Positions 34,576 through 60,385 of a stretch of DNA of 64,000 bases are shown piece by piece. Source of the stretch: Chamaelirium japonicum (lineage: Eukaryota; Streptophyta; Magnoliopsida; Liliales; Melanthiaceae). Numbering within the stretch: position 1 is the stretch's first letter; each line of letters begins with the position of its first letter. The stretch is taken from assembly GCA_947650365.1 (NCBI GenBank), contig OX393554.1:34627877-34691876 (forward strand), read 5' to 3'. The position numbers and the translations under genes are program-made. A model generated the notes under the pieces. It made no database searches. It was not told the origin of the DNA and saw only the letters and a program-made list of their open reading frames with translations.

Positions 34576-36665
34576 TGTATGCGCAGAAAAAGATACGGGT
34601 CGTCTTTATTGCAAATCACACGAGATTACAGAGTGGCCGGGACCCGGTGGCTCGGGTGTGGCGAGTCCGGGTGCGGCGAATATTTGATCAGGAGATTGTG
34701 GGAGAGATCCTCTGGAGGGTCCCTTTGATCCGCGTCTCCACGTGGTATTCGTGCGAGAGCTCTGAAGGGGTTGCCCAGGACAGAGGTCTTTACAGGGTGA
34801 GGGTTTCTTGAGAGGCTAAGGAATATCGACCGTTGATTTAGTCTCGTTCGTGCTTCGCGCTTTCTCGGCTAGGGAGGTTTTAGGCTTCGTTCCTCGGTCT
34901 TCGTGTCTTCCTTGAACCTTGCTAGACCTCGGTGTCCTTGATCGTCGATTCGCGGCGTCGATCGTGTTTTTGGCGTCAGCTTTGGCTTTGGCTTTCGGCT
35001 TTGGCGTTGCTTTGGCGTGGCTCTGGCTTTTGCTTTGCTTTAGCGCTTGCGCTTGAACGTAGGCTGGTAGAGGCTTGCGATGCTTTAGTTCTTCCGGACT
35101 TCGCGTCGTATCGGCTAGAACGTGCGGTGCTTTGCTCGTGACCGTCGTAGTTGCTTGGCTTTGGCACGTGCGTTGCTTTGGCGCGGGCTTTACCGGTGCG
35201 TTTGCTTTGGCTTCTTGCGTTGGCTTTGGCTTTTAGCTTTGACTCGATCTTCTTCTCGAACGGCGATGGCTACTTCTTCAAGACTTTTTTATTCTTCCAG
35301 CTTCCTCGACGGTTGTGGCGTCGGCTTGGCTTTTCGGCGGGGGTAGCACCGATCTTCGTGCGACTGTTGTAGCATCGGCTTTTATTGATGAAGACGGTGG
35401 GGGTAGCACCGATCTTCGTGCGATGGTTGTAGCGTCGGCTTTTGTTGATGAAGACGGCGGGGGTAGTACCGATCTCCGTACGACGGTTGTAGCGTCGGCT
35501 TTTGTTGACGAAGACGGCAGGGGTAGCACCGGCTTCAGGCCTTCTTCTCCAAGCTTTCTTCTTCGTGCGAGGAATCGATGCCTTTGTTGAAGACGACGGG
35601 TGTTGTCGGCTTCGATCTTCTTCTCCGGCCTTTGCTTATGGCGTCTTCGGAGTTGATGAAGATCGTTGGAGAAGTCGGGATGACGACGACTCCGTGTCTT
35701 CTTCTCCAAACTTTCTTCTTCGTGCGAGGAGTCGAAGCTTTGATCTTCGAGTGCAATGTCTTCACGTTGATGAGGACTTAAAGGGCCAAGGATTCCCGTA
35801 GGACGTGCTTGTCGTGCCTCGTGAAGCCTTCGGTCTTCAAGCGTTGGAGCTTCTCTTGCAGAGCCTTTTCGTCTTCAGCCTTCGGACCTTTGATGCCTTC
35901 CCCCACCCCTTCTATTTATAGGCAAAGAGGGGCGTTTGGGAGAGATATGGCCGAAATCTTTTTGTTTCATCCAATATCTCCCCCCATAACCATCAAGATA
36001 TTGTTTCTTTATTTAGGGAAACAAACTCGATCCCCTCCTTTTTAGTTGGGGTGGTTACGGGCAAGATGTGACTTGATCTTTGAAGATTGAGTTGTCATCT
36101 TTGCACTTTCGAATCGGATGGTGACACGACGTCATCTTGTCCGTCGGATCGAGGGATCGTCGTGGATCTACAGTTGTGTAGACGTCCACGCCACCTCCCC
36201 CCGCATCGAGGCGGTTTGGATTTTCTTTCTTTTCTTTTTCTTTTCTTCTTCTTCTTTTCTTTTCCTTTATGGCCGGCCCCACCTCCCAAAAGGAGGGGGG
36301 CACGGTTTTCTATGAAGGGGGGGCCGGTGGCCCCCCTCTTTGTGTTCGAGCTGCGGGTCTAGTGGGACCCTTTTGCTTTGGGTCAGTCGCCTTTTATTTA
36401 CGGGCCGTTGTGAGCTAAGTTCGCATGCGGGCCGTTGTGTGCGGGCCCGGTTTCACATGCAGGCCGTTGTGTGCGGGCCAAGTTTCGCATGCGGGCCATT
36501 GTGTGCGGACCAAGTTTTGCGTGCGGGCCAAGTTTTGCGTGCGGGCCGTTGAGTGCGGGCCCATTTTGCGTGTGCGAGTCGGGTTCGACCCGTGGGCCGT
36601 TGTGTGCGGGCCTGTTTTACGTGTGCGAGTCGGGTTCGACCCGAGGGCTAATTTCGGTGCCCACA
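34576..36665 (-). repeat. 3' LTR of the Tat element
   Basis: 2090 bp, reading TGTATGCGCAG to GGTGCCCACA on the plus strand. It includes a 60-bp tandem repeat (units at 35341, 35401, 35461 and 35521), GGCTTTGGC-rich low complexity (about 34.97-35.25 kb) and ~31-bp GGGCCGTTGTGTGCGGGCC repeats (about 36.40-36.62 kb). The minus-strand TATAAATA is at 35913-35920. The first ~330 bases differ from the other LTR at about 14 positions. Confidence 0.95.
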
Positions 36666-36667
36666 AA

Positions 36668-36676
36668 TGCCCCCTC
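36668..36676 (-). promoter_or_regulatory. Polypurine tract of the Tat element
   Basis: Minus-strand TTGAGGGGGCATT directly precedes the 3' LTR (TGTGGGCACC). This confirms the minus orientation. Confidence 0.75.
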
Positions 36677-36746
36677 AAGTTTGAGTGCGCCCGCGGGAAA
36701 CGTGTAGCGCTTGGACTTGACTCGCGTATTCGTGTGGGATTAGGTC

Positions 36747-36753
36747 TTTATAA
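36747..36753 (+). promoter_or_regulatory. Candidate TATA box for the antisense gene
   Basis: TTTATAA in GGTCTTTATAAGGACCCCCG on the plus strand, about 80 bases inside the element from the 3' LTR and followed by a pyrimidine-rich leader. It is correctly placed to start a transcript toward the antisense gene. Function is inference. Confidence 0.4.
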
Positions 36754-36830
36754 GGACCCCCGTTTCTTCGTTTCTCCTTATCGTCGAAAGTTCCCGGCGG
36801 CTTGGAGACGAAGAATCTTGCTAGGGTTTC

Positions 36831-37497
36831 TTGCTTTGCGACGATGACGTGGAGGATGAAGATAGTCACCCCATGGAGTTTGAGAAGACGATGAGACTGC
36901 CGGATTGTGGAGGGTGGAGGGTCGCAGACGAGGTTGTATTCCTTCTTCTTCTTCTTCTTCTTCCTGGTTCTGGACTGCGCGCGCGGGAGCGGCAGCGGCA
37001 GTGGCGGCGCGGCGTGCGGGAGTGGCAACAGCAGCGGCGGCGCGCGCACGGGGCACGGGGGCCGATGCTGCGGGGCGCGCGCGGTAGGGGGTTCGGCGCG
37101 CGCGGGAGCGGCAGCAGCAGCGGCAGCGGGCGCGGTGGGCGCGGTGGCCGGCGCGGCAGGCGGGCCCGGCGGAGGAGGCGGAGCGGTGGCCAGCGCAGGA
37201 GGCGGCGCGGTGGCCAGTGTGGCAGCAGGGGCCGGCACCAAGGCCAACAGCCCCCCCTGCGGGTTTTAACCAGGAGAGAGGGGGTTGCGGCTTTTTGCTG
37301 TGGCCCCCCTCTTGTTTCTTTGTTTTGGCATACGGGGCCTGCAGCTTTTTAGCCGAGGCCTCCTCTTGATTTTCCTATTCGTATGATAGGGGCCGCAGCC
37401 TTTATCCGAGGCTTCGTCTCGATTTTTTTTTTTTTTGCTATTCAACTTGTACTTTTCTTGCGATCTGACTTGGGCTCTGCCTTCCTTCTTTTTCCAG
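36831..37497 (+). other. Leader region of the antisense gene, GCN-repeat rich
   Basis: An open stretch starts at 36831 (acidic start, then low complexity). It continues into a GGCAGCGGC-type repeat (about 36.98-37.25 kb) encoding Gly/Ala/Arg-rich nonsense in several frames. CCTTCTTTTTCCAG at 37484-37497 has the form of a splice acceptor, so part of this stretch may be a 5' intron. No domain is seen. Confidence 0.35.
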
Positions 37498-39278
37498 GTC
37501 TCGGCGTTACGAGAGTTTTCCGAGTTCTGGCTGGATCGTCGATGCGGTCTCCCATGGGAGTACGCATCTTCGTTTCCCTTTTGCACAAGTCTTCCACCAC
37601 CGTGCTTTGAGACAGGAGGACAGACCATCGGTACTTCAGCTTTCGACGCACGAGCGAATTCGTGAGGATGGCGTGGCCGACGGCTCTTGTCGTGTGTTGA
37701 AGCTTGGCGAGCGCACTCTTACCGATGAGGGATCTTCACAGCAGATTGTTCGACCGAGTTTGGGATTACCATTCCATCATACCAGCGAGGAATCGGTCCC
37801 CGTCCCAGTTGTTGCCTTGAAGATATGCTCTCGCCGTACGCGATGGGGTGTGGAGATTCAACCGCGTGGTGGTGTCACATATCTAGGAGGTTTCCGGGAC
37901 TGGATGTGAGAGCTATCTGGCGCGTTGGAGGCAGAGCCAGGGATGGAGTGCCTGGTGAGGTTTGTGGAGCTGTCCTGTTGAGTGTACAGCCGGCCGGATG
38001 GTATGTACCGGGCTCTTTGCGAGCAGTGGTGCCCTGAAACCAACACTTTTTTGATCGGAGCTGGTGAAATCGGGATCACCCTTCGTGGTGTTCATATTAT
38101 CTCTGGATGTCCAGAAGTTCGGAGCTACTATCAGGAGGAGGTTCCTTCTTTGGAGGTCTTGACGGATCCAGACGAGTCTTCTAGCTTCTGTCTTTTGCTT
38201 TTTAAGGCATATGCTATTATAGCGGTGCGTGAGCAGTCAGACCGAGTACTCCACTCATCTTGGGTGGACTTCTGGTTTCGAGGAGAATATCGCCATATTC
38301 CCCCTTCGAATCACCCGATGTGGAGGTACACATCGTCGAAGAAACTGGCACCTGGCACTTTCCGGCGGCCGATTGAATCTCTGAGGAAAGAATGGTGCTC
38401 CATGGCGGGAGCGCAGCGTCCCTGGGAGGTTTTGGGACTGGAGGAATGCAGCGACGCTTGGCGGGCTGTCTATTGGCCGGCAGGGTTGGTGCTCTTTCTT
38501 TGTCGCTTTGCCCTGCCCTGGAATAGGGATGTGATACACCCTGGGACCTTCCTTGCGGCTGCTCGGATGGCGAACGGGGAACTTCTCAACCTGGCACCGG
38601 CGATCCTTTGCTCGCTGTATCAAGGGCTTAGCAGAACATACTGGAGTTTATCGAGCACGGATAATGCGAGAGGGGAAGTGGGCCGAGCCAGTTTCTTTTG
38701 CCCCCTTCATTATCTATGGTTGGATTGGGCTCCACTTTCCGAAGGGGATCTTTGAGGCGCGCGGGCCTTCGACCTCAGTACCCTTCCTTCCTTGTGTAGG
38801 AGGTGTGATGAATGCTTATTATGCATGGGAGCGTCCGAAGCCCAGTGCTCGAGAGTGTTTGAGACGTATGGGCCCTTCCGACTTCGACTTTGTATCGGAG
38901 AATGCGCTTGTACCTTTCGCGAGATCCTTGGTATGCGATGGGCCGGACATGCCTGAGCACTTGTACTGGAGTATGGTAAGTTGCAAACCCGGGTATCTTG
39001 TTTGGCGTCATGGGGACACAGTGGAGGTGGCACGATATTCTCCTCACCGGTTTGCTCGACAGTAGGGTTTTCGCCAAGAGTTGACGGGGACCCCTTTGCG
39101 AATGAAGTCATGTTACACTCCCCAGGAAGCGTACCGCCTTTGGAGAGCACTTTATGATCGCTTTACTGGGTGTATTTTCTCGCCGGGGATTAAGCCGGGC
39201 GGAAAGGATGCTGCAACTCCTGGATATCGTCGCTGGGTCAATGAGTCAGTACTTCCTTCCTGGCTAGCTTTCCACTAG
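37498..39278 (+). pseudogene. Antisense plant-mobile-domain (PMD) gene, domain part
   Basis: Lies on the strand opposite to the retrotransposon's own genes. The frame from 37982 contains ETNTFLIGAGEIGITLRGVH, then SSWVDFWFRGEYRHIPP and ARMANGELLNLAPAILCSLY. These are characteristic stretches of the aminotransferase-like plant mobile domain, found in MAIN/MAIL-type proteins and in some plant transposons. The domain continues in another frame from about 38.62 kb (WAEPVSFAPFIIYGWIGLHFPKG, RYSPHRFARQ, QEAYRLWRALYDRFTG, ending near LPSWLAFH). Breaks seen: a TGA at 37979-37981, a frameshift near 38.62 kb and a TAG at 39063-39065. PMD function is not well defined; MAIL1/MAIN affect gene silencing and genome stability. 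Opposite-strand ORFs in the 3' region of Tat elements are known as a class. This copy is decayed. Confidence 0.7.
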
Positions 39279-39325
39279 ATATCCTTGCTAGTAGCGAGCG
39301 AGTTGACTTTTCTTTTGACCCTTCG

Positions 39326-40704
39326 GTGGGGTTGGAGGATCGCCGCCTTTGGTTCGAGGAGCGACGATCGGAGAGATCTCACGGTCATCGAGAGAGTGCT
39401 TCCCGGGCTTCTCCTTCTGTACAAGAGGTCGAGATGGCTTCGTCTACCAAGGTTCAGAGTCTTCCTGAGACTCCGACTTCTTGGAGTGGACGTGTTTCTT
39501 CCAAGAGAAGGAAGTTGGATTTCTTGTGTGAGGCAGCTTTGGATGGCACTAGTAAGGCAGGGCCAGCTCGAGAGGGAGAGCCAGGGCTTTTTGCCGATGA
39601 GGTAATTCCTCTTTCTGGGGTAGCTTTATCAGATGTCGCAGGTATATCTCATTTCTAGTTGCTCATGGATTTCTTTCCTTGTATTCTTATTCCGTTGGAT
39701 GAGTTGTTTAACTCTCATCTTGGTAGGTTCTGCTGGAGTGGGCTGCGAGTCTGCCCCCAATAGGGTTAGGCATGAATGTTATCCCATCAGAGCGACGTTG
39801 ATCGAGAGTGACGAGCTGGATGTACCCTGGGATAACTTAGAGCTTTTGGGAGCGTGTGGAGCAGATTTTGCCGGCAGTGCTGTCAACCTGGATGATATTG
39901 ACATGGAACAGTTGGGCTTTGGGGAGGAGGATAAGGTCTCCAGTGTAGGGAGAGAACAGACTCCTCTAGTTAGGCCTGGTAGCCTGGTAGAGGTTACTCC
40001 TACGGTCGTCCCGTCGGAAGGTTCGCCTGTAGCTTCTCCTTCAGCTCCAGTGGCGTCGTTGACTGTTACCACGGCGATGGTTCAGGAGGCGGTTCCCGTA
40101 CTTGAGCCTTCAGGACCGGAGCCTACCTTGTCTGTGCACTCAGGGGCTGACAAACAAAAGTGTGGTTCGTGGGGCCTTCTTTCTGCGCTTCTTTTAGAGA
40201 GTTGTCGGAAGTATATCCAGGCGACGCTTGCACCTTTTCAGGAGGATGGTCTTGATGCTTTGAATGGCTGGTGGGCCCTCGAGGGACCTGAGTTTTGCGA
40301 GAGTCTAGCGGCTTTCCAAGTAGATGGTTCTTTGTTTGAGGAGCGCATGCGTGCTTTCTTGGTGGACAGTGAATCTCATCGCTTGAAATGGGCTTCGATG
40401 GATGATGACCTTTCCTTGATACTAGCAAAGGCTGAGGACGAGGAGCGTCGACTGGAGGAACGGCATACACTTGCCACCGCGCGCCTTGTTCGGGCACGGA
40501 AGAAGCTAGAGGCCGCTCGCGCATCTTTTGAGAAAGCTGAGATGATCGATCGAGAAATGGTTTGGAGAAGATCTTACGAAGCAACGTATTGAGTTGACGA
40601 CGCATCGGGAGCGGACAGCTTCTCGGTCTTCGGAGCTGCAGCGCATGGAGGTTGCTGGCGGCGAGCTGCTTCAACGTCTTAAGGAGCTTAATTCGCTTTA
40701 CTAG
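39326..40704 (+). pseudogene. Antisense PMD gene, C-terminal part with intron and coiled coil
   Basis: A serine-rich, basic stretch (SWSGRVSSKRRKLDF, possibly a nuclear signal) runs to 39641. A canonical 85-bp intron follows, and coding continues at 39727 in the matching frame with an acidic region (LDDIDMEQLGFGEEDK). Around 40.43-40.60 kb a heptad-like charged helix begins (EDEERRLEERHTL, ARKKLEAARASFEKAE). The frame then slips by one near 40.55 kb and the helix continues in the new frame to a stop at 40702-40704 (LQRLKELNSLY). A PMD followed by a coiled coil would suit a protein-interacting nuclear factor. That is inference. No homologue of the tail was recognised. Confidence 0.6.
39642..39726 (+). 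other. Spliceosomal intron of the antisense gene
   Basis: GCAG|GTATAT at the left and CATCTTGGTAG|GTTC at the right, with a T-rich interior. Without it the stop in the exon-1 frame (TTCTAG) is bypassed and the two flanking frames join in phase. The size is typical for plants. Confidence 0.7.
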
Positions 40705-40950
40705 CAGTGTTGCCTTTCTTTTTCTTTCTTGTCACTTTTGCTGGATAGACTCTTAGTTTTGCTTTCCTTCGTTTGATGATAACTTAATATTATGCATCTA
40801 TTTCTTGGACTTGTCTTCTGGAATAACAGTGTCTGGTTGTTTTTTTTTTTGTTTAGACTGAACCTTTACAGGCTGCCTAAGTACCCTACTAAGAGGGATC
40901 AAGTCGCACGTAGTTCTTTTTTTTTTTTTGCAAGAAGTGTAGCCCTGCTT

Positions 40951-42303
40951 TTAGGCGTAGTACCTTTTGAGGTACTTGCCACTGATAGGGCCGAGTGTAG
41001 GCCCTTCTGGAGTGGTGAGAAGATATGCACTGTTGGAGTAGACCTCTTTGACAGCGTGCGGTCCATCCGACTTGGCGTCGAACTTCTTTCCTCCTCGATG
41101 CGAAAGAATGATGGGGCGTTTGACTGCCAGCACCAGTTCTCCTATTTGGAAGGATCGAGGGCGAATTCTTTTATTGAAGGCTTGCGTTAACCTGGCTTGA
41201 TAGCATTCCAAGCGTTGCTGGGCTTCGAGGCGCTTTTCATCCAGTGCTTCCAATTCTGCTAGGCGAAGTTGGGCGTTGTCGCCGTTGACGAGGCCTTCTT
41301 GGATGGCTATCTTGAGTGACGGGATCTGGAGCTCAAGCGGGAGGACAGCTTCTACTCCATATACCAGTGAGTACGGAGTTGCTTGTATTGGCGTGCGAAA
41401 AGAGGTGCGATATGCCCATAACACTTCACCCATGCGTTCGTGCCAGTCTTTCTTTGACTTCGAGGTGCCTTTCTCCAAAAGCTTGCAGAGAGTCTTGTTG
41501 AAAGCTTCCGCTAGACCGTTGGCCGACGCGTTGTACATGGTTGAACACCTTTGCTTGATATCGAACTTGGCACAAAACTGGCTGACAGTGGCATTCTTGA
41601 ATTGCTTCCCGTTGTCCGTGACGATATAGCGAGGGATTCCGTACCGAAAGATGATGTTGTTCTGGATGAAGTTGATGACAGAGTGCCTGGTAACTTCTCG
41701 CAATGGTACTGCATCAGCCCACTTGGAGAAGTAATATGTTGCTGCCAGGATGTAAAGATGCTGCTTAGATGACTTGGGTAGTGGACCGACAATGTCGAGT
41801 CCCCATCCATCGAAGGGCCATGATGCGATGGTTGGATGCAAAGGTTCCGGAGACTGACGGATGTAGTCGCCATGCAATTGGCAAGCATGACATCTCTTTC
41901 CAAACTCGAGGGAGTCCTTGATCATAGTGGGCCAGTAATATCCCATCCGCCTGATGCGGAAGTGAAGCTTTGGACCGGACTGGTGTGAGCCATAAATCCC
42001 GGCATGGACTTCTTCTAGTGTTGTTTCTGCTTCTTCTTTTGCAAGACATCTCAGGAGCGTACCATCGTAGCTTCGACGGTACAACTCGTTGCTGAAGTGG
42101 AAGAATTTCAGAAACCACCGGCGAATGTCGACCTTACGCTTTGGATCTTCAGGGAGCTTCCCGTGGACAAGAAAGTCTATGAATGGTTGTCTCCAATCTA
42201 GCTCGTCGGTCATGAGGACGTGTACTGCATTGACTTGGTCTGGGATTCCCATAGGGAGGTCCTCCTCGGTGATCACCATCCTCTTGCAGATAGGGATGAT
42301 GGG
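40951..42303 (-). pseudogene. Tat integrase (open 442-codon part of pol)
   Basis: Part of the broken pol gene but itself uninterrupted. In the piece counted from Met at 42279 the zinc motif is His92, His99, Cys130, Cys133. The catalytic triad is Asp162 (GLDIVGP), Asp222 (VTDNG) and Glu258 (NGLAEAFNK), with 35 residues between the last two as in gypsy integrases. The end (PRSFQIGELVLAVKRP, then HAVKEVYSNSAYLL) is the GPY/F-like C-terminal region. It is in frame with the preceding RNase H piece but separated from it by the TAG at 42304-42306. The catalytic residues are complete, although the element as a whole is dead. Confidence 0.9.
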
Positions 42304-43293
42304 TTAGCTTTTCTCTGGGAATGGAAGTGTAGCCGCTAAATTTGCGAGCGCATCAGCCTGCTGGTTAAGGTTTCTGGGGACATGCTGGATTGAAGAAGTT
42401 TTGAGCGTACCAAGGAGTTTCAGAGCTCGCAGATGTAATGGCACGAGGTCTTCTTTGTTAACTTCGTATGCTTCCAATATTTGCTGAATGACGAGCTGAG
42501 AGTCGCCAAAAATTTTGAGCCCTTGAAGTTTCATATCATTGGCGAGTTCGAGGCCAATAATCAAGGCTTGATATTCCGCCCTGTTATTGGAGCATGGTTC
42601 TGATAGTAGAAACGAGAAAGGAAGTATTTTATCGTTTGGCATGACAAAGATAACTCCTGCTCCTGCCACGTCTTGCCTTGTCGCGCCGTCGAAGAACATC
42701 TTCCAAGAAGGGGCGATATCGATGCAGAATACTTCTTCGTTTGGGAGTTCTTCTGATAGTTTCCATTCGGCTGGAAAGGGGTATTCTGCCAGGAAGTCCG
42801 TGAGAGCTTGACCTTTGACCGCTTTTCGAGGGACGAATGTGATGTCAAACTCGAGAAGAAGTAAAGCCCACTTGGCCAAACGTCCGGAGAGCACTGGTCT
42901 TGACATGATGTATTTGAGTGGGTCGGCTTTTGAGATTAGTCTGATGGCATAAGCTAACATATAGTGTCACAGCTTCTTTATGGCGAAAATGAGTGCCAGA
43001 CAGACCTTCTCGATCGGGGAGTAGTTTAGCTCTACGCCGATGAGAGTGCGACTCAAATAGTAACATGTTGTTTCCTTGCCTAGCTCGTTGTCTTGAGCCA
43101 GGAGTGCCCCCAAGGACTGCTCCTGGGCACTGATGTAGATGACCAATGGCTTTCCTTGAACTGGTGCTGTTAAAACTGGAGGCTTAAGTAAGTAATTCCT
43201 GATGTTTTGGAGGGCTTCCTGACAAGCTTCATCCCACTTGAATGGTGCTCCTTTCTTCATGAGGCGACTGAAGGGCCTACATTTTCCAGCTAA
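42304..43293 (-). pseudogene. Tat RNase H and additional RNase H (aRH)
   Basis: From the right: the RNase H tail of the RT (YISAQEQSLGALLAQ, YYLSRTLIGVELNYSPIEK), a TAG at 42967-42969, then the thumb-like linker and a complete second RNase H. In the piece from 42960 its catalytic residues are Asp91 (FFDGA), Glu129 (NRAEY), Asp153 (GDSQL) and Asp203 (QADAL). This archaeal-type second domain is diagnostic of Tat elements. The right end is cut off by the solo LTR. The RT palm and fingers are missing. Confidence 0.88.
42925..43087. repeat. 163-bp segment duplicated across the solo LTR (copy 1)
   Basis: The RNase H-coding stretch from GGCTTTTGAGATTAG to TTGCCTAGCTCG occurs again at 45901-46063 in the same orientation with four differences. 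Confidence 0.93.
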
Positions 43294-45900
43294 TGTCACG
43301 CCCCATACTCTGAGTAGTCCCAGAATTGAATAGAACAGGTCAGAATAGGGAACGTGAAGGGTGGTAATTTTTTTTTTTAATTATACTAAGTAAATTCCAT
43401 AGACATAAAGGAGATAGCAATGACAACACGAGCTAAATCAAAAACTACAAAAACTCAGATTCCAGAGAACTAATTGCTATCCAACAAAATAATACAAATT
43501 TTAATAAAATTGCCCCAAGCATAGTCCACTACTAGCGGAAGAAAGAAAACGAGGGAAATGTCAAGTGTCCTTGACTGCTTATTGACGCTCCAGCACACTC
43601 ACACTGCTGCACCAGCACCGACTGCTACCGAACTGAAGATCTACTGCTGCTACTAACCTGCACCCAAATATGGGTGTCAATCGCAGTGATAACCCACTGT
43701 TAATAGAAGATATTTATCTACTTTTAACTGTCAAAGATAAGTTGATAATTTACCAGATGACAAATCGACTTCTAAGCCCAGTAATTATTACATCTCACTA
43801 AAATATATAGAACTATAAGTTATTTAGAAATGTGAATTATTCGGTTAACCAAATTGGTTAGCCTATGGAATGGACCGTCGGTTTTGTCCCTGAAGACCGC
43901 AGACCGACAACACGTTACAAAAGGGGTGATTTTCACACCGGTTCACCCAAACACCTCCTTGGTCCTACACCGGCCCAAGTAACCGCTTTCCCTAGTTGGC
44001 CAAACTAAGATTTTTTCGTCTCTCACGGAGGAGCACCGAGCCCAGCTTGCTGACTTTTCTTCGATCACCACTAGGTGGCTTCCAGGAAGATGGTATCCCC
44101 TGTTCAGTTTAGGTTAACTCATTTATATATTATTCCAATTATGCCCCTCCCGTCAAGATAAAACGGCGAGGGAAGGATACCATGTCCCTTGCCAAATAAC
44201 TATAGGGGTCCATCTCCTACAGCTATTGGCTTTCTACTAATATTAAACCTCTACATATGTCCTAACAATTAAGGACTAGCGAGTTAACACTTGATTCTAC
44301 TTATAACTTGTATAAATAAAAAAAATAATAGAAGAATTTAAAAAGAAGACTTTGGGTAGTGTAGGCCCTAGCATGCTTCTATGTTTTGGTTACATAACAT
44401 GGTTCAAGATAGTGGTAGATCCATATTACAATTCAGAACTTAGATTGAAACACAATTTAAACATCTTATGTTTTGAAACTTATAACATGAAATTATCCAC
44501 CACTAGTTACGATGAAAATTGATTAAATAGCATATCATAAAAATCGGCTTGTCATTATCCATAAGATGAAAATAATATTTGAATTCTATGCTAATCAGAT
44601 ACAAAATATAGATGATACAATATTATACTAAAGGAATATTTAATATATATAACTTATTAACCGACGAGTGATAATCCCATGAAGGAAATCACCTGGATTA
44701 AGGATCGGAAACTCCTCGGCTCGATCGAAAGGAACCGATGCAACGGTTACGATTGGGACTTTGGGTGTTGAGACGAAGGTCTGTTTATATAGAAAATGAT
44801 GGTGTTCACGATATTAGCTTTAATTTAAACCAAGTTAGGAGTGTAAAAAAAAAAATTACCTAAGGAAATCAAAGTTGAAAGTCGGCTTGATCAATGTGGA
44901 ATACACGAGAGTTGCGACGATGCTATCAATCCAACAATCAAAAGGGAAAAATTACTGATAAGAGGGTGTGGCTGCACTTTCACCTTGAGGGCACACAAAT
45001 AAGAGAAAAAGGGGAAAGATGGCTAGATCATTCGTTCAATAGAGATGGGAAGAGGAGATAAGGATAACAAATTTTAGAGAGGTTAGAGAAAAGGAGGGGA
45101 GAGATCACAACAGAATTTTTGTTTAAAAAAAATAGGGCCGGCTGATTCCCGAGTGAAAAGGAGGGCTCGGGATAGGTAAAGGTTGAGAGAGAGAGAAAAA
45201 GGGTGAAAAAAAAAGGTTTGGTTTAGGGTCGTCCATCACAGATCGGATGGAGGGGCTGATCCCTCTATGTGATTGGGTCTGTACTGTGAACAGTAACCCC
45301 GCGGTTACTGTTCACGGGTACTATTTTCTTTTTTTGTTTTGTTTTGTTTTGTTTTGTTTAATTGGTATAAATAAATACACAAAAAAATAGGAAAAACTCT
45401 ATATATGAAAGTTACTCAGAAAAACTCCCCGGATCCATCCGAGCCATCGGATCGAGATTTTGAAAATGTTTTAAAATAGTTGCTAAATATAATAATATTA
45501 TTTTATTTATAAAAGAAATGCAAATTGTAGGACCATGTTTGACAAATCAAACACCGTCCGATTCTCCCGATTTCAGAGTCGATGGGTTTGGACTCAAGTA
45601 GGGAATTACTATATGTTTCTAGCTACTCCCGAAATCCCAAACTTCATCGGAAACCCGGATCAAAACCATAAATTGTGGATTTTAATACAATTGTACAGAT
45701 ACAAAAGAGATTGACAGGAATCGATCAAAAGAGCGGTACTGAGTAGTAACCAACCATATGCAAGTTAACCTAAAGAAAGACCACAGTTGGTTGTTCGGTA
45801 AACACACTAAAGCTTCACTCGACAACTTGACACGGTAAACTAAAAAGGAAAACACCCTATAATCAAATATTTAATAAAGAAAAGATTACGGGTCGTTACA
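43294..45900 (-). mobile_element. Solo LTR, Tekay/Del-like Ty3/gypsy, without matching TSD
   Basis: 2607 bp with termini TGTCACGCCCC and GGGTCGTTACA on the plus strand (minus: TGTAACGACCC...GGGGCGTGACA), the style of chromovirus LTRs. Flanks GCTAA (left) and GGCTT (right) do not match, and Tat sequence on the right is a duplicate of sequence found left of the insertion. A 13-bp inverted repeat GTGAACAGTAACC/GGTTACTGTTCAC lies at 45286-45315. No internal coding sequence. Confidence 0.75.
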
Positions 45901-46063
45901 GGCTTTTGAGATTAGTCTGATGGCGTGAGCTAACATATAGTGTCACAGCTTCTTTATGGCGAAAATGAGTGCCAGACAGACCTTCTCGATCGGGGAGTAG
46001 TTTAGCTCTGCGCCGATGAGAGTGCGACTCAAATAGTAACATGCTGTTTCCTTGCCTAGCTCG
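45901..46063. repeat. 163-bp duplicated Tat segment (copy 2)
   Basis: Second copy of the RNase H segment at 42925-43087. Its right edge joins GAGGATCCTCATGCG, the start of the RT region, with a frame change, marking the RT deletion. Confidence 0.93.
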
Positions 46064-47103
46064 AGGATCCTCATGCGTACCCAAGTTGATTTCCTTTAGA
46101 TCGTCGATGGTAGATTGCCCCCCTTCTTCGAGGACGGGCAACGGAGTATGTTGCATGGATCTTGGCTTGGAGCTGATGCGCATCCTTCGTCTTGGCACTA
46201 GCACTTCCCTGATTTCGTGTATTGCCTTGGATGGCTGCACTGGATTTCGAGTTGGCGGAGTTTCATCCCACTCCATCCTTTTAGCTTTCTGAGTTCGAGG
46301 AGCTTTAGCTGGAAGGACTTCTGCAATAAGGTCCTTTGCTTGGTAAAATTTGGCATCAGCGAGGTATGCTTCGGCCTCATTGAATGGCTTATCATCTGCA
46401 ATAATGCATTTCTCCAGACCTTCCTCATAGTACTTGAGGCATTGGTGCCAGGTAGAAACTACGACACCGTTTTCATGTAGCCACGATCATCCTAGCAAGA
46501 GACGATATGATGTCTGACAGTCGATGATATGGAAGAGAACTATCGTGTCAAGCTGGTTGATGGAGAGTTTTAGACGAATGATTCCTACGGTGGACTGTCC
46601 GCCTTGGTTGAACCCTTGGATGACAAGCTGGCTTTGTGAGAGCTGGTTGGTAGTAATGCCGAGCTACCGCATTGTTTAGATGGGCATGATGTTGGCGGAG
46701 CCGCAATCCAACAGGATTCGATTTACCGGCTTCTCGTTGATGTATCCCGAGACGTAGACAGGTCGATTGTGCAGTAGTGCTCCGAGCTACAGATCTTCGT
46801 CCGAGAAAGTTATCGCCGCACTGCAGGAGACAATAGTTTTGTTTTTCTTAGCGTCTTTCTTCTTTCTTTTGTAGCTGTCTGGATCTGCCAAAGCCTCGGC
46901 CATTGCTAGACGAGCCTTCTTTGGGAGGTGTAGTGCTTCTATGAGTGGCAAGTGCAAGATTGCCTCATCGTGGGCAGCAGCACTCTCTTTGTCAGAATTA
47001 TCCTCCTCGTCGTCGGTGTTGCTATCTTTAGGAGACTCGATCTTGTCTCCTTCTTCCGGTGTCACGTGGATTTCAACCATGCAACAAGAAGCTTTGTGCT
47101 GTT
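46064..47103 (-). pseudogene. Tat protease and pol N-terminal remnant
   Basis: The minus-strand frame, shared with gag, encodes an acidic/Lys-rich linker (DDEEDNSDKESAA), then a retroviral-type aspartic protease with LLDCGSANIMP (catalytic Asp at 46706-46708), then GLEKCIIADDKPFNEAEAY and DLKEINLGTHEDPR, which normally opens the RT region. Stops at 46787, 46676, 46664 and 46487 break it. RT sequence ends after EDPR where the 163-bp RNase H copy begins in another frame. Confidence 0.8.
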
Positions 47104-47107
47104 GTTC

Positions 47108-50100
47108 TGTCACGCCCCAGAAATCTGAATATCGATCCCTGGGGTGTAAAATGAGAAAAAGAAGAGGGTTTGGGTCTGGTCAATTAATTACACCAATTTG
47201 GGTTCTCATAGAGCTTCTTCTACGCTCTGTAATATGAAAAACAAGAAGGAGGGAGAAACAAGAGTGAAATCTTTTAAATTTGATTTCTCGAAAACATTTT
47301 TTTATTGAAAAGCAAAGAAAGAGAAATGTCACTAGAGAGAAGGCATTATCTAGTCAGGCTCGACCTTCAAAAGTCATATCCTCTCAGGATGTGTAACATG
47401 TCGGTGCCACTACATGCTGACAGGAGTCTATCTGAGGGAGCACGAGGCTCAAGCCACTACGGCTAGCCAAGTAGTCTCATCCACTCCCTAACACTCAGGT
47501 GCACCAGTCTAGAGTTCCTATCTACAGGGTTAATCAATTTAGTCATTTATATGCACTTATATTTTCATCATGATCTATCCTAGGCTTGGAGCCTTGAGGA
47601 GAGGCCTACCCAAAAGAATTCAGCTGGAACCATTGCAACTACAACCATAGAATACTAACTAACTGATAAAAACTCTTATTCCAATACAATTACAATATCT
47701 GAAGAGAAAAGACTACAAGATTAACGTACTAAGCAGAAAGATAACACTGCAACTCTAACTCCGCCTCTGGACTCCTACTGCTACTCCTGAGCCTCCGGAC
47801 TTGCAACTGAGCCTACTCGTGGGAAAGAGTAGCCCCCAATAGGAAATTGGGAGATTAGCCAAATTAATGGCTAGTGACATCCTAATAGTCTTTAATAATA
47901 TGAGACAACTAATCTTAATAAATTAAGATAAGATCTATCAGTTCTAGTAGGATCAATGTTTGCATAATGATACCTAAACCTATCAGTAGTCTATATTCAC
48001 ATGCAATTCCTACTGTCACTAGGTTCTCTAACATAAAGTCCATTCAATGTTCTACAGCATTAAAGTACAAATTAAATAAGACATTCATCTAAAGTCACGA
48101 GATCATCATGTGAACAGTCATACAATTCTAAATTCATATACAGATAAAACATACTCTATCAAAATGTGAACCCCGGATATTTTGTTCATCCTGCCCCCGG
48201 TCGGGCATTACTATAGGGCCTTTTATTTCGATATAGAGGGCCAACTCTCTCGTCGTGCATCCACCAACACCATACACCAGTCACCCAGATGATCATAAGG
48301 GGTTTCCCGTCTTTCACGGTGGAGCTCTACCGCCCAACTTGCTTTACTATGGGGACTTCAACTCCCTGGGACAGGGTTGCTAGGCCAATCCCTACTCGAG
48401 GGCACCTCCTATTGGCTTTACCACAACCCTTGCCCGTGACCCCTAACCTACTTAACTTTGGCTGTACGCGCAGGGTGGTTCACGACCCTTGCGCGCACGG
48501 GGTCCCTACGTACCCTCTAACCAGGTAGATTCGCATACAATATCTTTCAACATATACAATGAAGCTACAAAAAATCTATTTAATGCTTAACAATTTCCAA
48601 CAATTTACCCCTGGTCTCGTACTCCCTCGTAACCAATGCGACATAATAAATAAATAAAGTAAGACACTCATCCCGGTGACCCGTATGCTAGGGTTGCCAT
48701 ACTCCTCTCAGGATGGTGGGCCCCGATAATTATTAGTTATTCAATTTATTGATTAATTTAAGGGAATCCTAATTACGGTATCCATATAATCAAAAGCAAT
48801 CATTATTATTATTATTATATTAATATTTTAAGCATGCATCGCCGGACTCGTGACTCCGCATGTAAGGCGGGGTCCACTTGACCCCATGCGACGATGCCCG
48901 GCGGGGCCCGTATGTAGTGTCATGGACACCTACCCTTAGTCATTCTCATTTCCCACTATTAAAGACCACGCAAGGGTAGTAGATGTCACCTGGTTGGCAC
49001 ACACGACTCCTGCTAGTTGCCTCTGATCTGTCTCCGCTGGATTACCATACTCATGGTCTGATAACAAACACAGATCTATATCACAACTCTATCAATTAAA
49101 ACAAAAGAATCTACGATGAGGGTTCTATGCCAAGGATAGTCGGGCACCCTCGATAGGGGACCAATATTGAGTCGACAGCACGCAAATCCGTGCGACTGAA
49201 GAATTCGAACCTAAACAATACTAGGTCAATCAAGTAATTAGAAACTAAACCTACTCATCGAATCGGGCTCGAAGAACCCTTTCCGATTGTTCCAGTTTCG
49301 TTGGAATCCGACTTCGGTCGGAGGTTTTAGGGTCAAACCGATAAAAACCGGTCTATAATCGGTTCAATAGGGTAGAAGGGTCTCTAGGGTCCCAAATTAG
49401 GTTCAACACATCATCCTCGATTATCTGAGCATGATGCCACTGGTTTCGTCCGAATCCAAGTTCTGACGATGAAACGGCGGTCAAACCAAGTACCATGATA
49501 AGATTGGGTCCAAGGATAAAACAGGGGATTAAACAGTATAATTACTATACTAAACTATGACTAATAGGTAGGACTTTCCGAGCCGGTCGAAATGGCATTG
49601 GTTTCGTCCAATTCCGAGTTCGAACGGAGAAATGGCAGTCAAACCAAAATTGACTGGTTCACGGGTCTGGTTCAGGTGAACCAGACCGGTTCACTGTGTT
49701 GGTCGGGTCAGGTCTGCTGGGTCGGGTCGGGGCTATGGTGCAATGTCGGGTCGGGTTCAGGGTTAAATAGGTCGGGTCTAGGGTTAAGAAACTAACCTGG
49801 AAATTACAGATTTACCCCCCCCCCCCCCCCCCTAACTTCATCTTCTCCATGAGAGCCAGCCGCGGGCTGGTTCTTGCACGACGGTGGCCGACAGGAGGGG
49901 CGGCCTGGAGCGCCGACGAGCGCTCAGCCGGCCTCTCCCGTACCACCCCCACAAAAGAGGTACGGGGGGAGGCAGCCGGAGCGGCTGTCGGAGCCCGAGA
50001 GCTCAGCCGGAGGGGGCTTCACGAGGGGTTGGTCGGAGGTCGGTGGTCGCCGGGGAGGGGCTCGGTGCGGCGACGGTGTCCGCCCGTGCGGGCCGCGGCA

Positions 50101-50272
50101 AGGGATGAAGGTGGGGGTCGCGGAGGAGGATGGGAGGAGGAGGGTGGCTGACCTGGGGGTGTTGGTGTGCTCGCCGGTGCTCCGGCGAGGGGTGGGTCGG
50201 GATGCTTGATCCTCTCCCTTGATCTCTTCTTCTTCTCCCTCTCTGCCTCTCGTTCTCTCTCTCTTCGTCCTG

Positions 50273-50304
<32 letters not shown>

Positions 50305-51234
50305 TTCTCTCCCGTTCTCTCTCCCGTTCTCTCTCTCTTCCTCTCATTCTCTCTCTATCTCGTTCTCTCCCGTTCTCTCTCTCTCTATATATATATGTAT
50401 ATAGGTCGGTAAAGAGATGAGGTGGGGGGATAGGGTCGGTTAAGGCCTTCTGAATAAGGGGGAGGGGATAATTATGGTGGAAAGATTTGGCTCGATCCTC
50501 TCGAATCAAGCTCGATCCTCCCATCCGAATTTTTGGATTTTAAATCCCGGGGAGGCCGATCGAGAGGGTCTAAACCCAACTAAAGGTTTGGGAGAAAGGT
50601 CCTAGGGCTGATCAGGCTTGGTCCCGGGCCCTGAACTGGGCTCGGTTGGAACCCGAGTGCGATTCGTCCATCAACCGGGTTGAAAAGAATAATAAGTCGT
50701 AACTATCAAATCGGAAGTCGGAATAGGGCCCGAGAGGATTCGTTGGAAAGGTTTCGCCAACGCGAACGCGTTAGCACTTAGTAAATAATTTTCTAACCTC
50801 TGAATCTCTCAAAAAGAATAAAAGATTCCAAAACTTAAAATAGCAATAACTATTCACCCGGATGTTGGATCGACCCTAACTCAGGCTCATTGGAAGGCTC
50901 TCTTAGAGCCTCATCTAACGTATCATGTTTCGTTATGATCCGATCACCCGATCTCTTGTGGAGAACAAAACAGCTATAACTATCGATCAATTATCGCTTT
51001 TCTAGGGTTTGTCTGTCGGGCTGCCGAAACTGACTGCGCATACACCTAATCGTTGCACAGAATGCACCATCGTGACATGCTCGAAATTACGGAGAATGTG
51101 AATGTAAAATATCTCATAGGTTTACGATCCATTTATCAGGAAAAAGCCCAAAAAAAAAAAGTCTGACTGTAAGAAGATGAAACTAGCCATTGAGGATTTC
51201 TATTATTCTCAAATCTAACACCACAGGTGTTACA
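47108..51234 (-). repeat. 3' LTR of the LARD element
   Basis: 4127 bp, TGTCACGCCCCAG to CAGGTGTTACA on the plus strand. It includes a poly(C) tract near 49.82 kb, a GC-rich island (about 49.85-50.20 kb), a CT-rich tract and a TATA-rich block (50385-50404). The 212 bases at 50990-51201 are absent from the other LTR. Confidence 0.93.
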
Positions 51235-53049
51235 ACCTACACACCTTAAAGAAATTTTCGTCCCGAAAATTCAACTACAAAAACTATATATACGAGTCCA
51301 CTCATCTCTACTACCAAAACAAGAAGATTCTAGCAATGAAAAGCTAACTATAACGAGCGCGAACATCCTCACTAACACTACCAACAAGAAAGCCAAGTCA
51401 CTACACCAAATCTTACTAAAAGAAAACCCTGACCCTCTACTGCTCACAATCCTACTCTCTCTACTAACTTAAACATTATACGAGTCGACTCTCATAATTA
51501 TTAGGATAGAAATGAACCTCCTAATTCTCACATCGCGAATACAAGTTTTGGTTTCCATTTTTCATTCTAAGCATTACGGATTATACCATAATCATGAGTT
51601 TTGATCATTAACCCTGCATAGATAAGGGGCATCCCCCTTATTAGTACTACCAAGGGGTGTCCCCCTCGGTAGGGTAACTATCAAAACTCATATATTCAGA
51701 AACTTAAAATACACTCAATTGTCAGTGCCGATATAAAAGGTATATCCACTTATATAAGCACCCATACACCCGTATATAAATTTTTTTCTTTCGGTATCGA
51801 CATTACAATCATAGGAATGTATATTCTACTAGTACGCCTAATGTGTCTCAACTAGTACGCCTAACGTGTATCTAATACTAAACTAAAATCCTATAAGATT
51901 CCTATGAGACTAACACCTACACTAATCGAACTACCAATACTGCTCAAGGGCCTAAAGAACAAATGCCCCAAAATCTATTTCTCAAGTGGGTCCGTACTAG
52001 ATAGCCACGCTCTAGCAATAGATAGTTATCTCATTGGATCACTCCAAGACGAAGGGACCGATTCTAAACCAGAACTATTATGAGTTGGCTGAAGAAACTA
52101 CCTACTAGAAAACTAATGGCCAACTAATATCGACTGAGCAGATCGATACCAAGTACTAAATTCTACCCTAAACTAATCATCGAGATGGTTAGACGAAAAC
52201 CTCGCAACTATACAAAAATTAGAATAAACGACCTGAGGCAATTAGAGACAACTTAGAAAAAGGACAACCGAGAAAACTTATCATAATCTCAACATTCTGA
52301 GAACTAAAGGCAATCACTCAAAAGAAACTGAAGCAAACGAAAGTTACTAGAATCGAATAATAATTAGAAACAAAGCGGGGTGAACCGACAGAATAATGAT
52401 CATTCTTAAGATTCCAACTGATAAGATATTCTCAAATTTTATAAACGTAGGCAATCATTTTGACATCGTCGCTAATATCTTTTTAATACTCAATTATCTC
52501 AATTTTATCTTAACATCACTGTCATCTAGCCAGTGCGCTCTTTTCCGCGAGTTCTAATAAGAACTGCGAAACAAACCGCCAAAGCCTCCGAAGAGTCAGT
52601 GCGTAGCCTCAGTATGTCCTCTATCGGACAGTCACAAACCACCTCCAAAGTTCCCGAGAAACAATATGTAGTCGCCAAATTCTCCAATGAGAAAGTGTGT
52701 AGCTGCCAAAGTTCTTATTGAGAACATTGCATAGCCACAGTATGTCCTCTACCGGACAGTCATCACCACCGCCAAAGTTCCCTAGGAACAGTGCGTACTC
52801 TTTCGCAAGAGTCACTATCAAGGTATCACGTAATCTACTAACCATGGGAAATTCAAACTACCACCTGAGATTTTCATCTCCTGGTGTACTTCTTGAAACT
52901 ATTATCCCCAAGAGTCATCATCATTACTTATAGGATCTATTTAAAAAAAGACACATAAGCTCTACACCAAACTAAATATAACCCACGATACACAAGAGAG
53001 ATCTAACAAGTAAACTAATTTAATTATTACACCTATATTGAGATAATGG

Positions 53050-53260
53050 ATAATCCTAAAAACACCGACTAGGTCTCTAATACAAATGGTCAACAAGCGT
53101 CAATGAATCCTAAAACACCAACTAAGTCTCTAGTACTAAGGGTCAAGGAAGATCAAGGGATTCTAAACACCGACTAGGTCTCTAATACTAAGGGTCAACA
53201 AAGATCAAGGAATTCTAAAACACCGACTAGGTTTCTAGCGCTTAGGGTCAACGAAAAACA
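53050..53260. repeat. Tandem repeat in the LARD interior, ~4 copies
   Basis: Units with ACACCGACTAGGTCTCTAAT and GGGTCAACAAAGATCAA recur about every 55-60 bases with moderate divergence. Confidence 0.8.
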
Positions 53261-53922
53261 ACAAAACCAACATAAAGGGCAACCTCACAACCATGCCAGA
53301 TAAACCATCAAGGATATACATCCTTCTAGATATATTCAAATACATCCATCACAAAACCAATCAACTAAATCACTAACTGGAGTTGAATCTCTAGTCCTTG
53401 GTCAGCTCCTTACCACTAGAAAGTCTACAAGAATTTATATTAGGAGACTCCCAACCTATACTCTGATATAGACTCAAATACTATACTTCTGTCTAGGGAT
53501 CAAGAAATACCACCCTTGGTTAAGATGTTCCACGTGGCTCCTTCTTAAAAATTATCACCCGAGTTGTGATGACTAACTCTAAACCTAAACATTATAGCAC
53601 CTCAGAGTTCTAATACAATCATATGTATACAACATATAGATTAATTCATGAGTCTTGATCAATCAAAAACTCAATCATGGATAGTTCTTAGTTATAGATC
53701 AATTCCTCAAACAAAACCAGTTCTCCAAATATGATTAACCCTAGGTCCTTATCCTTAGAAATAATCGCTATACCGCCACTAGCTACAACGATAATTCTAT
53801 CGACTCAATATCTATACAATCTCTAGAAAACATTCTAACACCACTAGAGTCTAAACTTTCCAAAAAAAGAACCGTAAAACACGACCCACATCCTAACAAA
53901 ACCCCTAGGAACATATCCCTAA

Positions 53923-53934
53923 GCTCTGATACCA
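53923..53934 (-). promoter_or_regulatory. PBS of the LARD element
   Basis: Minus-strand TGGTATCAGAGC, complementary to initiator tRNA-Met, two bases inside the 5' LTR. Confidence 0.93.
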
Positions 53935-53936
53935 GC

Positions 53937-56900: not shown

Positions 56901-57099
56901 CGCCCGTGCAGGCCGCGGCAAGGGAGGAAGGTGGGGGTCGCGGAGGAGGATGGGAGGAGGAGGGTGGCTGACCTGGGGGTGTCGGTGTGCTCGCCGATGC
57001 TCCGGTGAGGGGTGGGTCGGGATGCTTGATCCTCTCCCTTGATCTCTTCTTCTTCTCCCTCTCTGCCTCTCGTTCTCTCTCTCTCTCTCTCCGTCCTGT

Positions 57100-57135
<36 letters not shown>

Positions 57136-57834
57136 GTTCTTTCTCTCTTCCTCTCATTCTATCTCTATCTCGTTCTCTCCCGTTCTCTCTCTCTATATAT
57201 ATATATATGTATATAGGTCGGTAAAGAGATGAGGTGGGGGGATAGGGTCGGTTAAGGCCTTCTGAATAAGGGGGAGGGGATAATTATGGAGGAAAGATTT
57301 GGCTCGATCCTCTTGAATCAAGCTCGATCCTCCCATCCGAATTTTTGGATTTTAAATCCCAGGGAGGCCGATCGAGAGGGTCTAAACCCAACTAAATGTT
57401 TGGGAGAAAGGTCCTAGGGCTGATCAGGCTTGGTCCCGGGCCCTGAACTGGGCTCGGTTGGAACCCGAGTGCGATTCGTCTATCAACCGGGTTGAAAAGA
57501 ATAATAAGTCGTAACTATCAAACCGGAAGTCGGAATAGGGCCCGAGAGGATTCGTTGGAAAGGTTTCGCCAATGCGAACGCGTTAGCGCTTGGGAAATAA
57601 TTTTCTAATCTCTGAATCTCTTAAAAAGAATAAAAGACTCCAAAACTTAAAATAGCAATAACTATTCACCCAGATGTCGGATCGACCCTAACTCAGGCTC
57701 ATTAGAAGGCTCTCTTAGAGCCTCATCTAACGTATCCTATTTCGTTATGATCCGATCACCTGATATCTTGTGGAGAACAAAATGGCTACAACGATCGATC
57801 AATTATTCTCAAATCTAACACCACAGGTGTTACA
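53937..57834 (-). repeat. 5' LTR of the LARD element
   Basis: 3898 bp, highly similar along its length to the other LTR apart from a 212-bp deletion near 57.80 kb and a shorter poly(C) tract. The minus-strand TATA-rich block is at 57193-57217. Confidence 0.93.
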
Positions 57835-57838
57835 GTTC

Positions 57839-60337: not shown

Positions 60338-60385
60338 GGCGAACTTGCAGCAACTCTTTCGAACATACGGATGAAAGGAGAGGAG

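What the first reader, a model, noticed from the sequence alone, without database searches (positions are those of the whole stretch)
36747..40704. Antisense plant-mobile-domain gene with its own intron inside a Tat retrotransposon
On the strand opposite to gag-pol the 3' region carries a decayed gene with PMD motifs (ETNTF...GEIGITL; NLAPAILCSLY; YSPHRFARQ), an 85-bp GT-AG intron that joins two frames in phase, and a C-terminal coiled coil. A retrotransposon that copies through genomic RNA keeps an intron only if the intron belongs to the opposite strand, which fits exactly. PMD proteins are linked to silencing, so such a gene might be an anti-silencing or host-derived module. Antisense ORFs are known as a class in Tat elements; the spliced PMD plus coiled-coil architecture is what deserves study.
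Basis: partly seen in the sequence, partly recalled or inferred. Interest (0 to 1): 0.88.

Follow-up and report, generated by a model that had tools for sequence, protein, structure and literature searches.

The report
Spliced antisense gene in plant retrotransposon
A plant jumping gene carries, on its opposite strand, an extra gene with what look like its own promoter and two introns, kept by natural selection while the element spread; it probably makes a nuclear protein related to plant proteins that help silence jumping genes.

Summary
The window holds a Ty3/gypsy Tat-lineage element on the minus strand (34576-62521, TSD TGCAC, LTRs 94.5% identical; another LTR element nested inside). Between pol and the 3' LTR, on the plus strand, lies a decayed gene with a significant plant mobile domain (PF10536, E=2.5e-14). 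In 31 aligned copies of this region the plus-strand frame is under purifying selection (median omega 0.31; PMD 0.14 in distant pairs; four of five other frames about 1, the fifth shares wobble positions). The 85-bp intron is supported: GT 30/31, AG 31/31. A second, upstream intron was not in the finding: a TATA-like box and an 89-nt first exon lie just inside the 3' LTR, and a 565-1242-bp intron joins exon 2 in phase. An NLS-like motif is kept in 29/31 copies. The coiled coil is not established; nothing shows host origin or an anti-silencing role. PMD extra ORFs in Ogre and antisense ORFs in Retand elements are published. An intron-containing, selected antisense PMD gene was not seen in my literature searches. 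Verdict: real, a new variant of a known kind.

The parts
34576..62521 (-). Ty3/gypsy Tat-lineage LTR retrotransposon (host element), interrupted by a nested LTR element
   Evidence: LTR pair 94.5% identical over 2113 columns; flanking 5-bp repeat TGCAC at 34571-34575 and 62522-62526; RNase H, second RNase H and integrase in that order
34576..36665 (-). 3' LTR of the element
60410..62521 (-). 5' LTR of the element
   Evidence: left edge exact to about 1 base
59507..60337 (-). gag-position ORF (276 aa); named by position, no domain search was run on it
40951..43299 (-). end of pol: RNase H (42967-43299), additional RNase H (42304-42960), integrase (40951-42279)
   Evidence: ORFs; Pfam
36746..36756 (+). 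TATA-like box of the antisense gene, about 80 bp inside the 3' LTR edge
   Evidence: (C/T)TTTATAAGG in 10 of 12 copies
36844..36932 (+). predicted exon 1 (89 nt, basic N-terminal peptide; interrupted by a stop in this copy)
   Evidence: length mod 3 = 2 in 11/12 copies, ATG in 10/12, stop-free in 9/12, donor GT in 11/12; pN/pS 0.34 against 0.93 and 0.96 in other frames, 11 copies
36933..37497 (+). predicted intron 1 (565 bp here, 565-1242 bp in 12 copies), low complexity
   Evidence: acceptor AG in 14/14 copies
37498..39641 (+). predicted exon 2: N-terminal region, plant mobile domain, linker with NLS-like KRRKL motif (about 39485-39527)
   Evidence: PMD; omega; motif 29/31 copies
37982..38755 (+). 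ORF carrying the PMD match in this copy
   Evidence: PF10536 E=2.5e-14
39642..39726 (+). intron 2, 85 bp, GT-AG
39727..40704 (+). predicted exon 3: variable 21-bp minisatellite region and charged, probably helical C-terminus; stop shared with L017 by alignment
40020..40070 (+). approximate site of the 21-bp (7-aa) minisatellite; extra units in ten other copies
   Evidence: insertions of +21, +42, +63, +84 and +168 relative to the window

Best explanation
The region is a three-exon, protein-coding accessory gene of a Tat-lineage LTR retrotransposon, placed antisense to gag-pol. Model: a promoter just inside the 3' LTR drives an antisense pre-mRNA; two introns are spliced out; the mRNA is translated into a protein of about 1,070 residues. 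That protein has a short basic N-terminus, a plant mobile domain, an NLS-like basic motif and a charged, probably helical tail, and would enter the nucleus. Because the introns are on the strand opposite to the genomic RNA, reverse transcription copies them unchanged. Selection on the protein implies that it helped the element spread. Most likely it acts in the nucleus on expression or silencing of the element, by engaging or mimicking host PMD complexes of the MAIN/MAIL1/PP7L type. Shown from sequence: domain, frame conservation, exon-intron conservation. Inferred: transcription, splicing, nuclear entry, function. The window copy is decayed.
For: PMD match over its cut-off and in a second copy over its N-terminal half (44.8 bits), with a weak sub-threshold match of the C-terminal motif (13.7 bits). 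Plus-frame omega 0.20 (CI 0.17-0.25, 1024 codons) between window and L017, near the integrase value of 0.15. Median omega 0.31 over 465 pairs of 31 copies, below 1 in 464; of the other five frames three have medians of 1.02-1.09, one 0.97, and the reverse frame that shares wobble positions 0.39. Omega falls from 0.54 to 0.23, and in the PMD from 0.51 to 0.14, as dS rises (26 of 31 copies): what selection during spread followed by neutral decay predicts. Splice sites and phase kept on both introns. Exon 1 frame pN/pS 0.34 against 0.93 and 0.96. Intron 1 differs in length in every copy while exon 1 keeps phase in 11/12. Extra minisatellite units in ten copies are multiples of 21. NLS-like motif in 29/31 and TATA-like box in 10/12. 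A relative, 58% identical over 39% of the query, is held from a JGI metagenome.
Against: No transcript or protein data. Intron 2 is short and conserved as a whole (mean site conservation 0.954, 49% of sites invariant), so its GT and AG alone are weak evidence; it also varies less than third codon positions. One reverse-strand frame also has omega 0.39, because it shares wobble positions, but it holds 28 stops in each of window and L017. One of 325 pairs has omega of 1 or more. Exon 1 was not found in 2 of 14 copies within the 1.2 kb fetched upstream and carries a stop in the window copy. The nuclear and silencing steps rest on motif and domain names. Only one genome was sampled, and the search for more distant relatives in it did not complete.
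Confidence: 0.6

Rival explanations
1. The same selected, spliced antisense gene, but its product serves integration or nuclear import of the pre-integration complex (a DNA-binding or chromatin-tethering factor) rather than silencing.
For: NLS-like motif in 29/31 copies; a nuclear localisation is reported for the antisense protein of maize Grande, and a role like retroviral accessory factors is proposed (PMC7264820, passages); the TRP28 domain of antisense Retand ORFs is predicted to bind DNA (PMC11963269, parts 1-3 of 5 read).
Against: The only domain over its cut-off is PMD, which in Arabidopsis is tied to silencing and gene regulation (PMC5418596 and PMC7156037, passages). No DNA-binding domain was found; the other matches were weak and under their cut-offs.
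Confidence: 0.25
2. The antisense RNA matters more than the protein: it pairs with genomic RNA, feeds small RNAs or trans-regulates the element, and the ORF is incidental.
For: Antisense transcripts are proposed to act this way for such elements (PMC7264820, passages).
Against: Codon-level purifying selection in one frame in all three exons with near-neutral controls, and extra units in multiples of 21 in exon 3, point to a protein.
Confidence: 0.06
3. A recently captured host PMD gene in genomic form, introns included.
For: It has introns and a PMD; other PMD loci exist in the same genome (L001-L008).
Against: Against the eight best PMD loci, the only match under E=0.01 is 27% identity over 96 aa; among eight more loci the only one at E 0.001 is 47% over 32 aa. 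Many other PMD matches end at profile position 181, where an intron is my inference; this gene's PMD runs on in one exon. Its intron region is shared by 40 scored matches, window included. A published tree puts gypsy PMDs in separate clades (passages).
Confidence: 0.05
4. Chance ORFs in a decayed 3' region; the intron is imagined to bridge frames.
For: The window copy has stops and frameshifts, and no RNA data exist.
Against: PMD E=2.5e-14; 0 of 300 first-order Markov simulations reach an open run of 257 codons; omega and splice conservation in 31 copies.
Confidence: 0.02

Closest known systems
PMD-containing extra ORFs of Ogre/Tat and other Ty3/gypsy elements (Steinbauerova 2011, cited in papers seen but not held; Neumann 2019 PMC6317226; PMC9289625)
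   Same: PMD PF10536 in an extra ORF of an angiosperm Tat element; reported in 57% of Ogre elements and as the commonest non-canonical domain found in plant gypsy consensuses
   Different: Here the gene is antisense, between pol and the 3' LTR, and split by two introns. From recall, the Ogre extra ORF lies in sense upstream of gag. Surveys by unbroken ORF (250 codons; 600 bp) would see exon 2 of an open copy, but not that it is one exon of a spliced gene
Antisense aORFs of Retand elements with Transposase_28 (TRP28, PF04195) (PMC11963269); maize Grande gene23; Silene Retand
   Same: Same place and orientation (pol to 3' LTR, antisense); own upstream promoter and nuclear product reported for Grande
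   Different: No TRP28 match in any piece scanned at E up to 10 (exon 1 not scanned); PMD instead. None of the five additional antisense domains listed in that survey is PMD. Introns are not described in the parts read
Host PMD proteins MAIN, MAIL1 and their PP7L complex
   Same: PMD domain; silencing context in Arabidopsis (passages)
   Different: Encoded by host genes; sequence identity to the PMD loci of this genome that were tested is low; extra tail and NLS-like motif here
HBZ of HTLV-1 (antisense gene of a retrovirus; splicing recalled, antisense position and nuclear product in PMC11963269)
   Same: Alike in layout: antisense regulatory gene at the 3' end, own promoter, spliced, nuclear product (the last three inferred here)
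   Different: No shared protein domain or homology claimed; here the first exon lies just inside, not in, the LTR
Pea Ogre gag-pro/pol intron
   Same: Intron in a Tat element
   Different: [quoted passage not shown] here the introns belong to the opposite strand

Membership tests
Ty3/gypsy Tat lineage, angiosperm Ogre/Retand type | Additional RNase H between RNase H and integrase | tested here: met
   RT_RNaseH_2 at 42967-43299, RVT_3 at 42304-42960, rve at 40951-42279, in pol order on the minus strand; criterion from PMC6317226
Ty3/gypsy Tat lineage, angiosperm Ogre/Retand type | LTRs with target-site duplication | tested here: met
   TGCAC on both sides, TG...CA ends
Ty3/gypsy Tat lineage, angiosperm Ogre/Retand type | Ogre or Retand placement by RT-RH-INT tree and primer type | not tested
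   No reference sequences held; primer site seen but not matched to a tRNA
Plant mobile domain (PF10536) | Score over the curated cut-off | tested here: met
   53.7 bits against 34.9; 44.8 in L017
Plant mobile domain (PF10536) | C-terminal part of the domain present | tested here: inconclusive
   Profile 273-295 matched at E=0.034 only, in L017; the motif is visible by eye
PMD-A (gypsy clade of Ikeda 2017) | Position in a PMD tree | not tested
   No reference tree sequences held
Retand TRP28 antisense ORF | Transposase_28 domain PF04195 | tested here: not met
   No match at E up to 10 in the exon 2 and exon 3 pieces of the window and L017; exon 1 not scanned
Spliced antisense gene | Splice sites and phase kept across copies | tested here: met
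   Intron 2: GT 30/31, AG 31/31, and 9 of 9 further places. Intron 1: GT 11/12, AG 14/14, phase 11/12
Spliced antisense gene | Spliced antisense RNA observed | not testable with these tools
   No RNA data held. A spliced-junction query found no processed copy among 40 scored of 659 candidates
Coiled-coil protein | Significant heptad pattern | tested here: inconclusive

The most novel reading that the evidence does not exclude
A plant LTR retrotransposon lineage carries a eukaryotic-style antisense gene (own TATA promoter, three exons, two introns that survive retrotransposition because they lie on the opposite strand). It encodes a nuclear PMD protein that mimics or poisons the host MAIN/MAIL1/PP7L silencing module: a plant counterpart in layout to the antisense HBZ gene of HTLV-1. 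Surveys by unbroken ORF would record its middle exon only and miss that it is a spliced gene.
Probability: 0.3. Interest if true: 0.82.

Novelty: new variant of a known kind. Interest (0 to 1): 0.62.

Why it matters
Antisense extra ORFs of plant retrotransposons have been known for years without a function, and reviewers have asked for a look at antisense and spliced transcripts (PMC7264820, passages). Here is a family (40 scored matches of 762 first-look candidates) in which such a gene shows introns and strong protein-level selection, with a domain that in host proteins is tied to transposon silencing. It gives an exact exon map to test by RNA sequencing, and it suggests that ORF-based surveys record such genes as single exons. 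It also bears on the open question, stated in PMC5418596, of how gypsy PMDs relate to the host silencing PMDs.

Tried and rejected
Structure: AlphaFold2 on the PMD piece with one relative gave pLDDT 34.5 and was discarded; no fold search was run.

Protein relatives: two searches of the protein collection gave one relative, P0001 (in 104 only the 8000 best of the candidates were scored). Solved structures: no match at E up to 10. Viral contigs: no match to the peptide patterns.

Other PMD loci of the same genome (L009-L016) were compared with the window's pol and gag; none matched at E 1e-3 within the fetched flanks. Ten proteins, nine of them ORFs from five of these loci, were scanned with Pfam: L012 has a Copia polyprotein downstream of its PMD. 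They were not followed further. L015 turned out to hold an LTR of this family, which led to the second copy, L017.

Coiled coil: tested twice, not convincing. One script failed on a stop, one timed out and one stopped part-way after printing four of the per-part results (those four are cited); all were rerun in corrected form.

Two further frame models for exon 1 were worked out by hand from the sequence and dropped, because the phase did not fit exon 2 or the frame closed.

Papers searched for PMD in retrotransposons and seen only in passages, without bearing on orientation or introns: PMC8616336, PMC6123737, PMC11152179, PMC12786077.

Host capture and chance-ORF explanations were rejected as stated under rivals.

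Full report
What the element is. The window lies in an unnamed 1.52-Gb genome. Two direct repeats, 34576-36665 and about 60410-62521, are 94.5% identical over 2113 columns. They are flanked by TGCAC on both outer sides. The element reads on the minus strand: gag-position ORF 59507-60337, RNase H 42967-43299, a second RNase H 42304-42960, integrase 40951-42279. An additional RNase H between RNase H and integrase marks the angiosperm Tat elements, Ogre and Retand (PMC6317226, passages). I could not place it in either by a tree. A second LTR element sits inside it (repeats 47107-50994 and 53936-57806, 95.5%).

The observation. On the plus strand between the integrase stop and the 3' LTR, ORF 37982-38755 matches PMD (PF10536) with 53.7 bits against a cut-off of 34.9, E=2.5e-14. 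First-order Markov simulations of the region never reached an open run of that length (0 of 300). The 85-bp GT-AG intron 39642-39726 shifts frame 2 to frame 3 in phase. The copy is decayed: in-frame stops and small frame-shifting indels interrupt it.

A region fetched around another PMD match happened to contain an LTR of this family, and the next 7.5 kb held the antisense region and integrase (L017). Window against L017, over 1024 codons in the predicted frame: dN 0.094, dS 0.461, omega 0.20 (0.17-0.25). By part: N-terminus plus PMD 0.12, rest of PMD 0.14, linker 0.41 (0.22-0.72), exon 3 0.34, tail 0.20. The other two plus frames gave 1.37 and 1.12; minus frames gave 1.13, 1.30 and 0.27. The last shares wobble positions with the real frame and holds 28 stops in each copy. 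The integrase of the same pair gave 0.15.

Thirty-one copies. One request on the intron region was answered: 762 first-look candidates, 40 scored, all 40 at least 92% identical, 30 loci (one is the window). With L017 this made 31 rows. Over 465 pairs the predicted frame had median omega 0.31, below 1 in 464. By part: PMD 0.22 and 0.23, linker 0.35, exon 3 0.44, below 1 in 457 to 461 of 465; tail 0.29, below 1 in 406 of 455. The other plus frames had medians of 1.09 and 0.97; minus frames 1.02, 1.07 and 0.39. Fifteen disjoint pairs ran from 0.22 to 0.61. In 26 copies (5 with rearranged ends left out), omega fell from 0.54 for pairs with dS under 0.1 to 0.23 for dS over 0.4, and in the PMD from 0.51 to 0.14; one of 325 pairs was at 1 or more. 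That is what is expected if the protein was selected while elements moved and each copy then decayed.

Intron 2. The donor is GT in 30 of 31 copies, the acceptor AG in 31 of 31, and the length 85 in 28 of 31 (82, 86 and 87 in the others). Nine further places all have GT, AG and 85 bp (a tenth row there repeats L047, and L062 and L063 are near-identical). The intron as a whole is well conserved (mean 0.954 per site, 49% invariant), so the dinucleotides alone would be weak evidence. The weight lies in the frame change at the intron with selection on both sides. A query of the spliced junction found only split matches, no processed copy, among 40 scored of 659 candidates. That agrees with an intron that genomic RNA cannot lose.

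A first exon and intron that the finding missed. In the window-L017 alignment similarity rises sharply at a TTTTTCCAG|G acceptor, 37497/37498 (45% of aligned sites differ in 37304-37496 against 13% in 37498-37600). The first in-frame ATG after it lies about 135 codons on, so a start is needed upstream. A conserved block also lies between the 3' LTR edge and about 36963. I fetched the upstream part of 12 more copies. With window and L017 that made 14; an exon of 89 nt (36844-36932) was found in 12 of them. In L053 and L054 it was not found within the fetched stretch, about 1.2 kb above exon 2. It is 89 nt in 10, 53 nt in one and 88 nt in one; its length leaves the phase needed by exon 2 in 11 of 12. 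It starts with ATG in 10 of 12, is stop-free in 9 of 12 (not in the window, L059 or L048), and ends at GT in 11 of 12. The acceptor is AG in 14 of 14. Intron 1 ranges from 565 to 1242 bp, a different length in each of the 12. Pooled pN/pS in exon 1 is 0.34 in the predicted frame and 0.93 and 0.96 in the others (11 copies, L048 left out). A TATA-like box, (C/T)TTTATAAGG, is kept in 10 of 12.

The protein. Exons sum to about 1,070 codons in window coordinates. Exon 1 is basic. The PMD N-terminal half matches clearly in the window and L017; the C-terminal motif only weakly (E=0.034). A KRRKL basic motif in the linker is kept in 29 of 31 copies; that it is a nuclear localisation signal is inference from recalled rules. 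Exon 3 contains a 7-residue, 21-bp minisatellite with extra units of +21 to +168 bp in ten copies (L035, rearranged there, is not counted, and L040 also has a frame shift nearby). The coiled coil was not established. No TRP28 match and no other domain over its cut-off was found in the exon 2 and 3 pieces. One relative from a JGI metagenome is 58% identical over 39% of the PMD query.

How it most likely works. Antisense transcription from the TATA-bearing segment, splicing, translation and nuclear entry are inferred from sequence. Reverse transcription preserves the introns because they are on the other strand. Selection implies that the protein mattered to the element. PMD proteins of Arabidopsis act in silencing, with PP7L (PMC5418596 and PMC7156037, passages), so regulation or evasion of silencing is the leading idea. 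Nuclear import or integration support is a real rival. RNA-only function is hard to square with codon-level selection.

What is known. PMD extra ORFs occur in 57% of Ogre elements (PMC6317226, passages), and PMD is the commonest non-canonical domain found in plant gypsy consensuses (PMC9289625, passages). Gypsy PMDs form clades of their own (PMC5418596). Antisense ORFs between pol and the 3' LTR are typical of Retand, 97% of clusters with TRP28; the five additional domains listed do not include PMD (PMC11963269, parts 1-3 of 5 read). An upstream promoter and a nuclear product are reported for maize Grande (PMC7264820, passages). Steinbauerova 2011 is not held, so its orientation data were not seen. 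My searches listed no title or abstract on an intron-containing antisense PMD gene; one search listed 15 of 85 papers, and the library lacks most subscription journals.

Verdict. The feature is real and larger than reported: a three-exon, selected, antisense PMD gene. It is a new variant of a known kind (PMD extra ORF, antisense aORF). Interest is fair to high because it makes the function of antisense aORFs testable. Transcription, splicing and function remain unproved.

Noticed in passing
27727-31812 (+): A 1361-aa uninterrupted Copia-type ORF with gag, integrase and reverse transcriptase domains, next to the Tat element.
   Followed up: no
47107-57806: An LTR element nested inside the Tat element, hence inserted later (LTRs 3.9 kb, 95.5% identical, starting TGTCACGCCCC).
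   Followed up: no
40020-40070 and copies L028, L031, L032, L034, L040-L045: 21-bp minisatellite in exon 3 whose unit number varies between copies; the extra units in these ten copies are multiples of 21 bp, +21 to +168.
   Followed up: partly
36960-37490: GC-rich, low-complexity stretch inside predicted intron 1; the intron has a different length in each of 12 copies (565-1242 bp).
   Followed up: partly
L062 and L063 (G000:C8, about 134 kb apart): Two near-identical copies, with two further pairs at the same spacing on that contig, that look like a segmental duplication rather than separate insertions.
   Followed up: no
L001 (G000:C4:7686103-7687191): A PMD gene with a single 693-aa open frame and the full domain (334.7 bits), unlike many other PMD matches here, which end at profile position 181.
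   Followed up: no
copy alignment (26 of 31 rows), PMD, exon 3, intron 2 and 3' flank: Third codon positions vary more than the intron or the 3' flank, partly at CpG sites (PMD third positions: 0.857 conservation in CpG against 0.915 elsewhere); methylation-driven mutation may inflate dS.
   Followed up: partly
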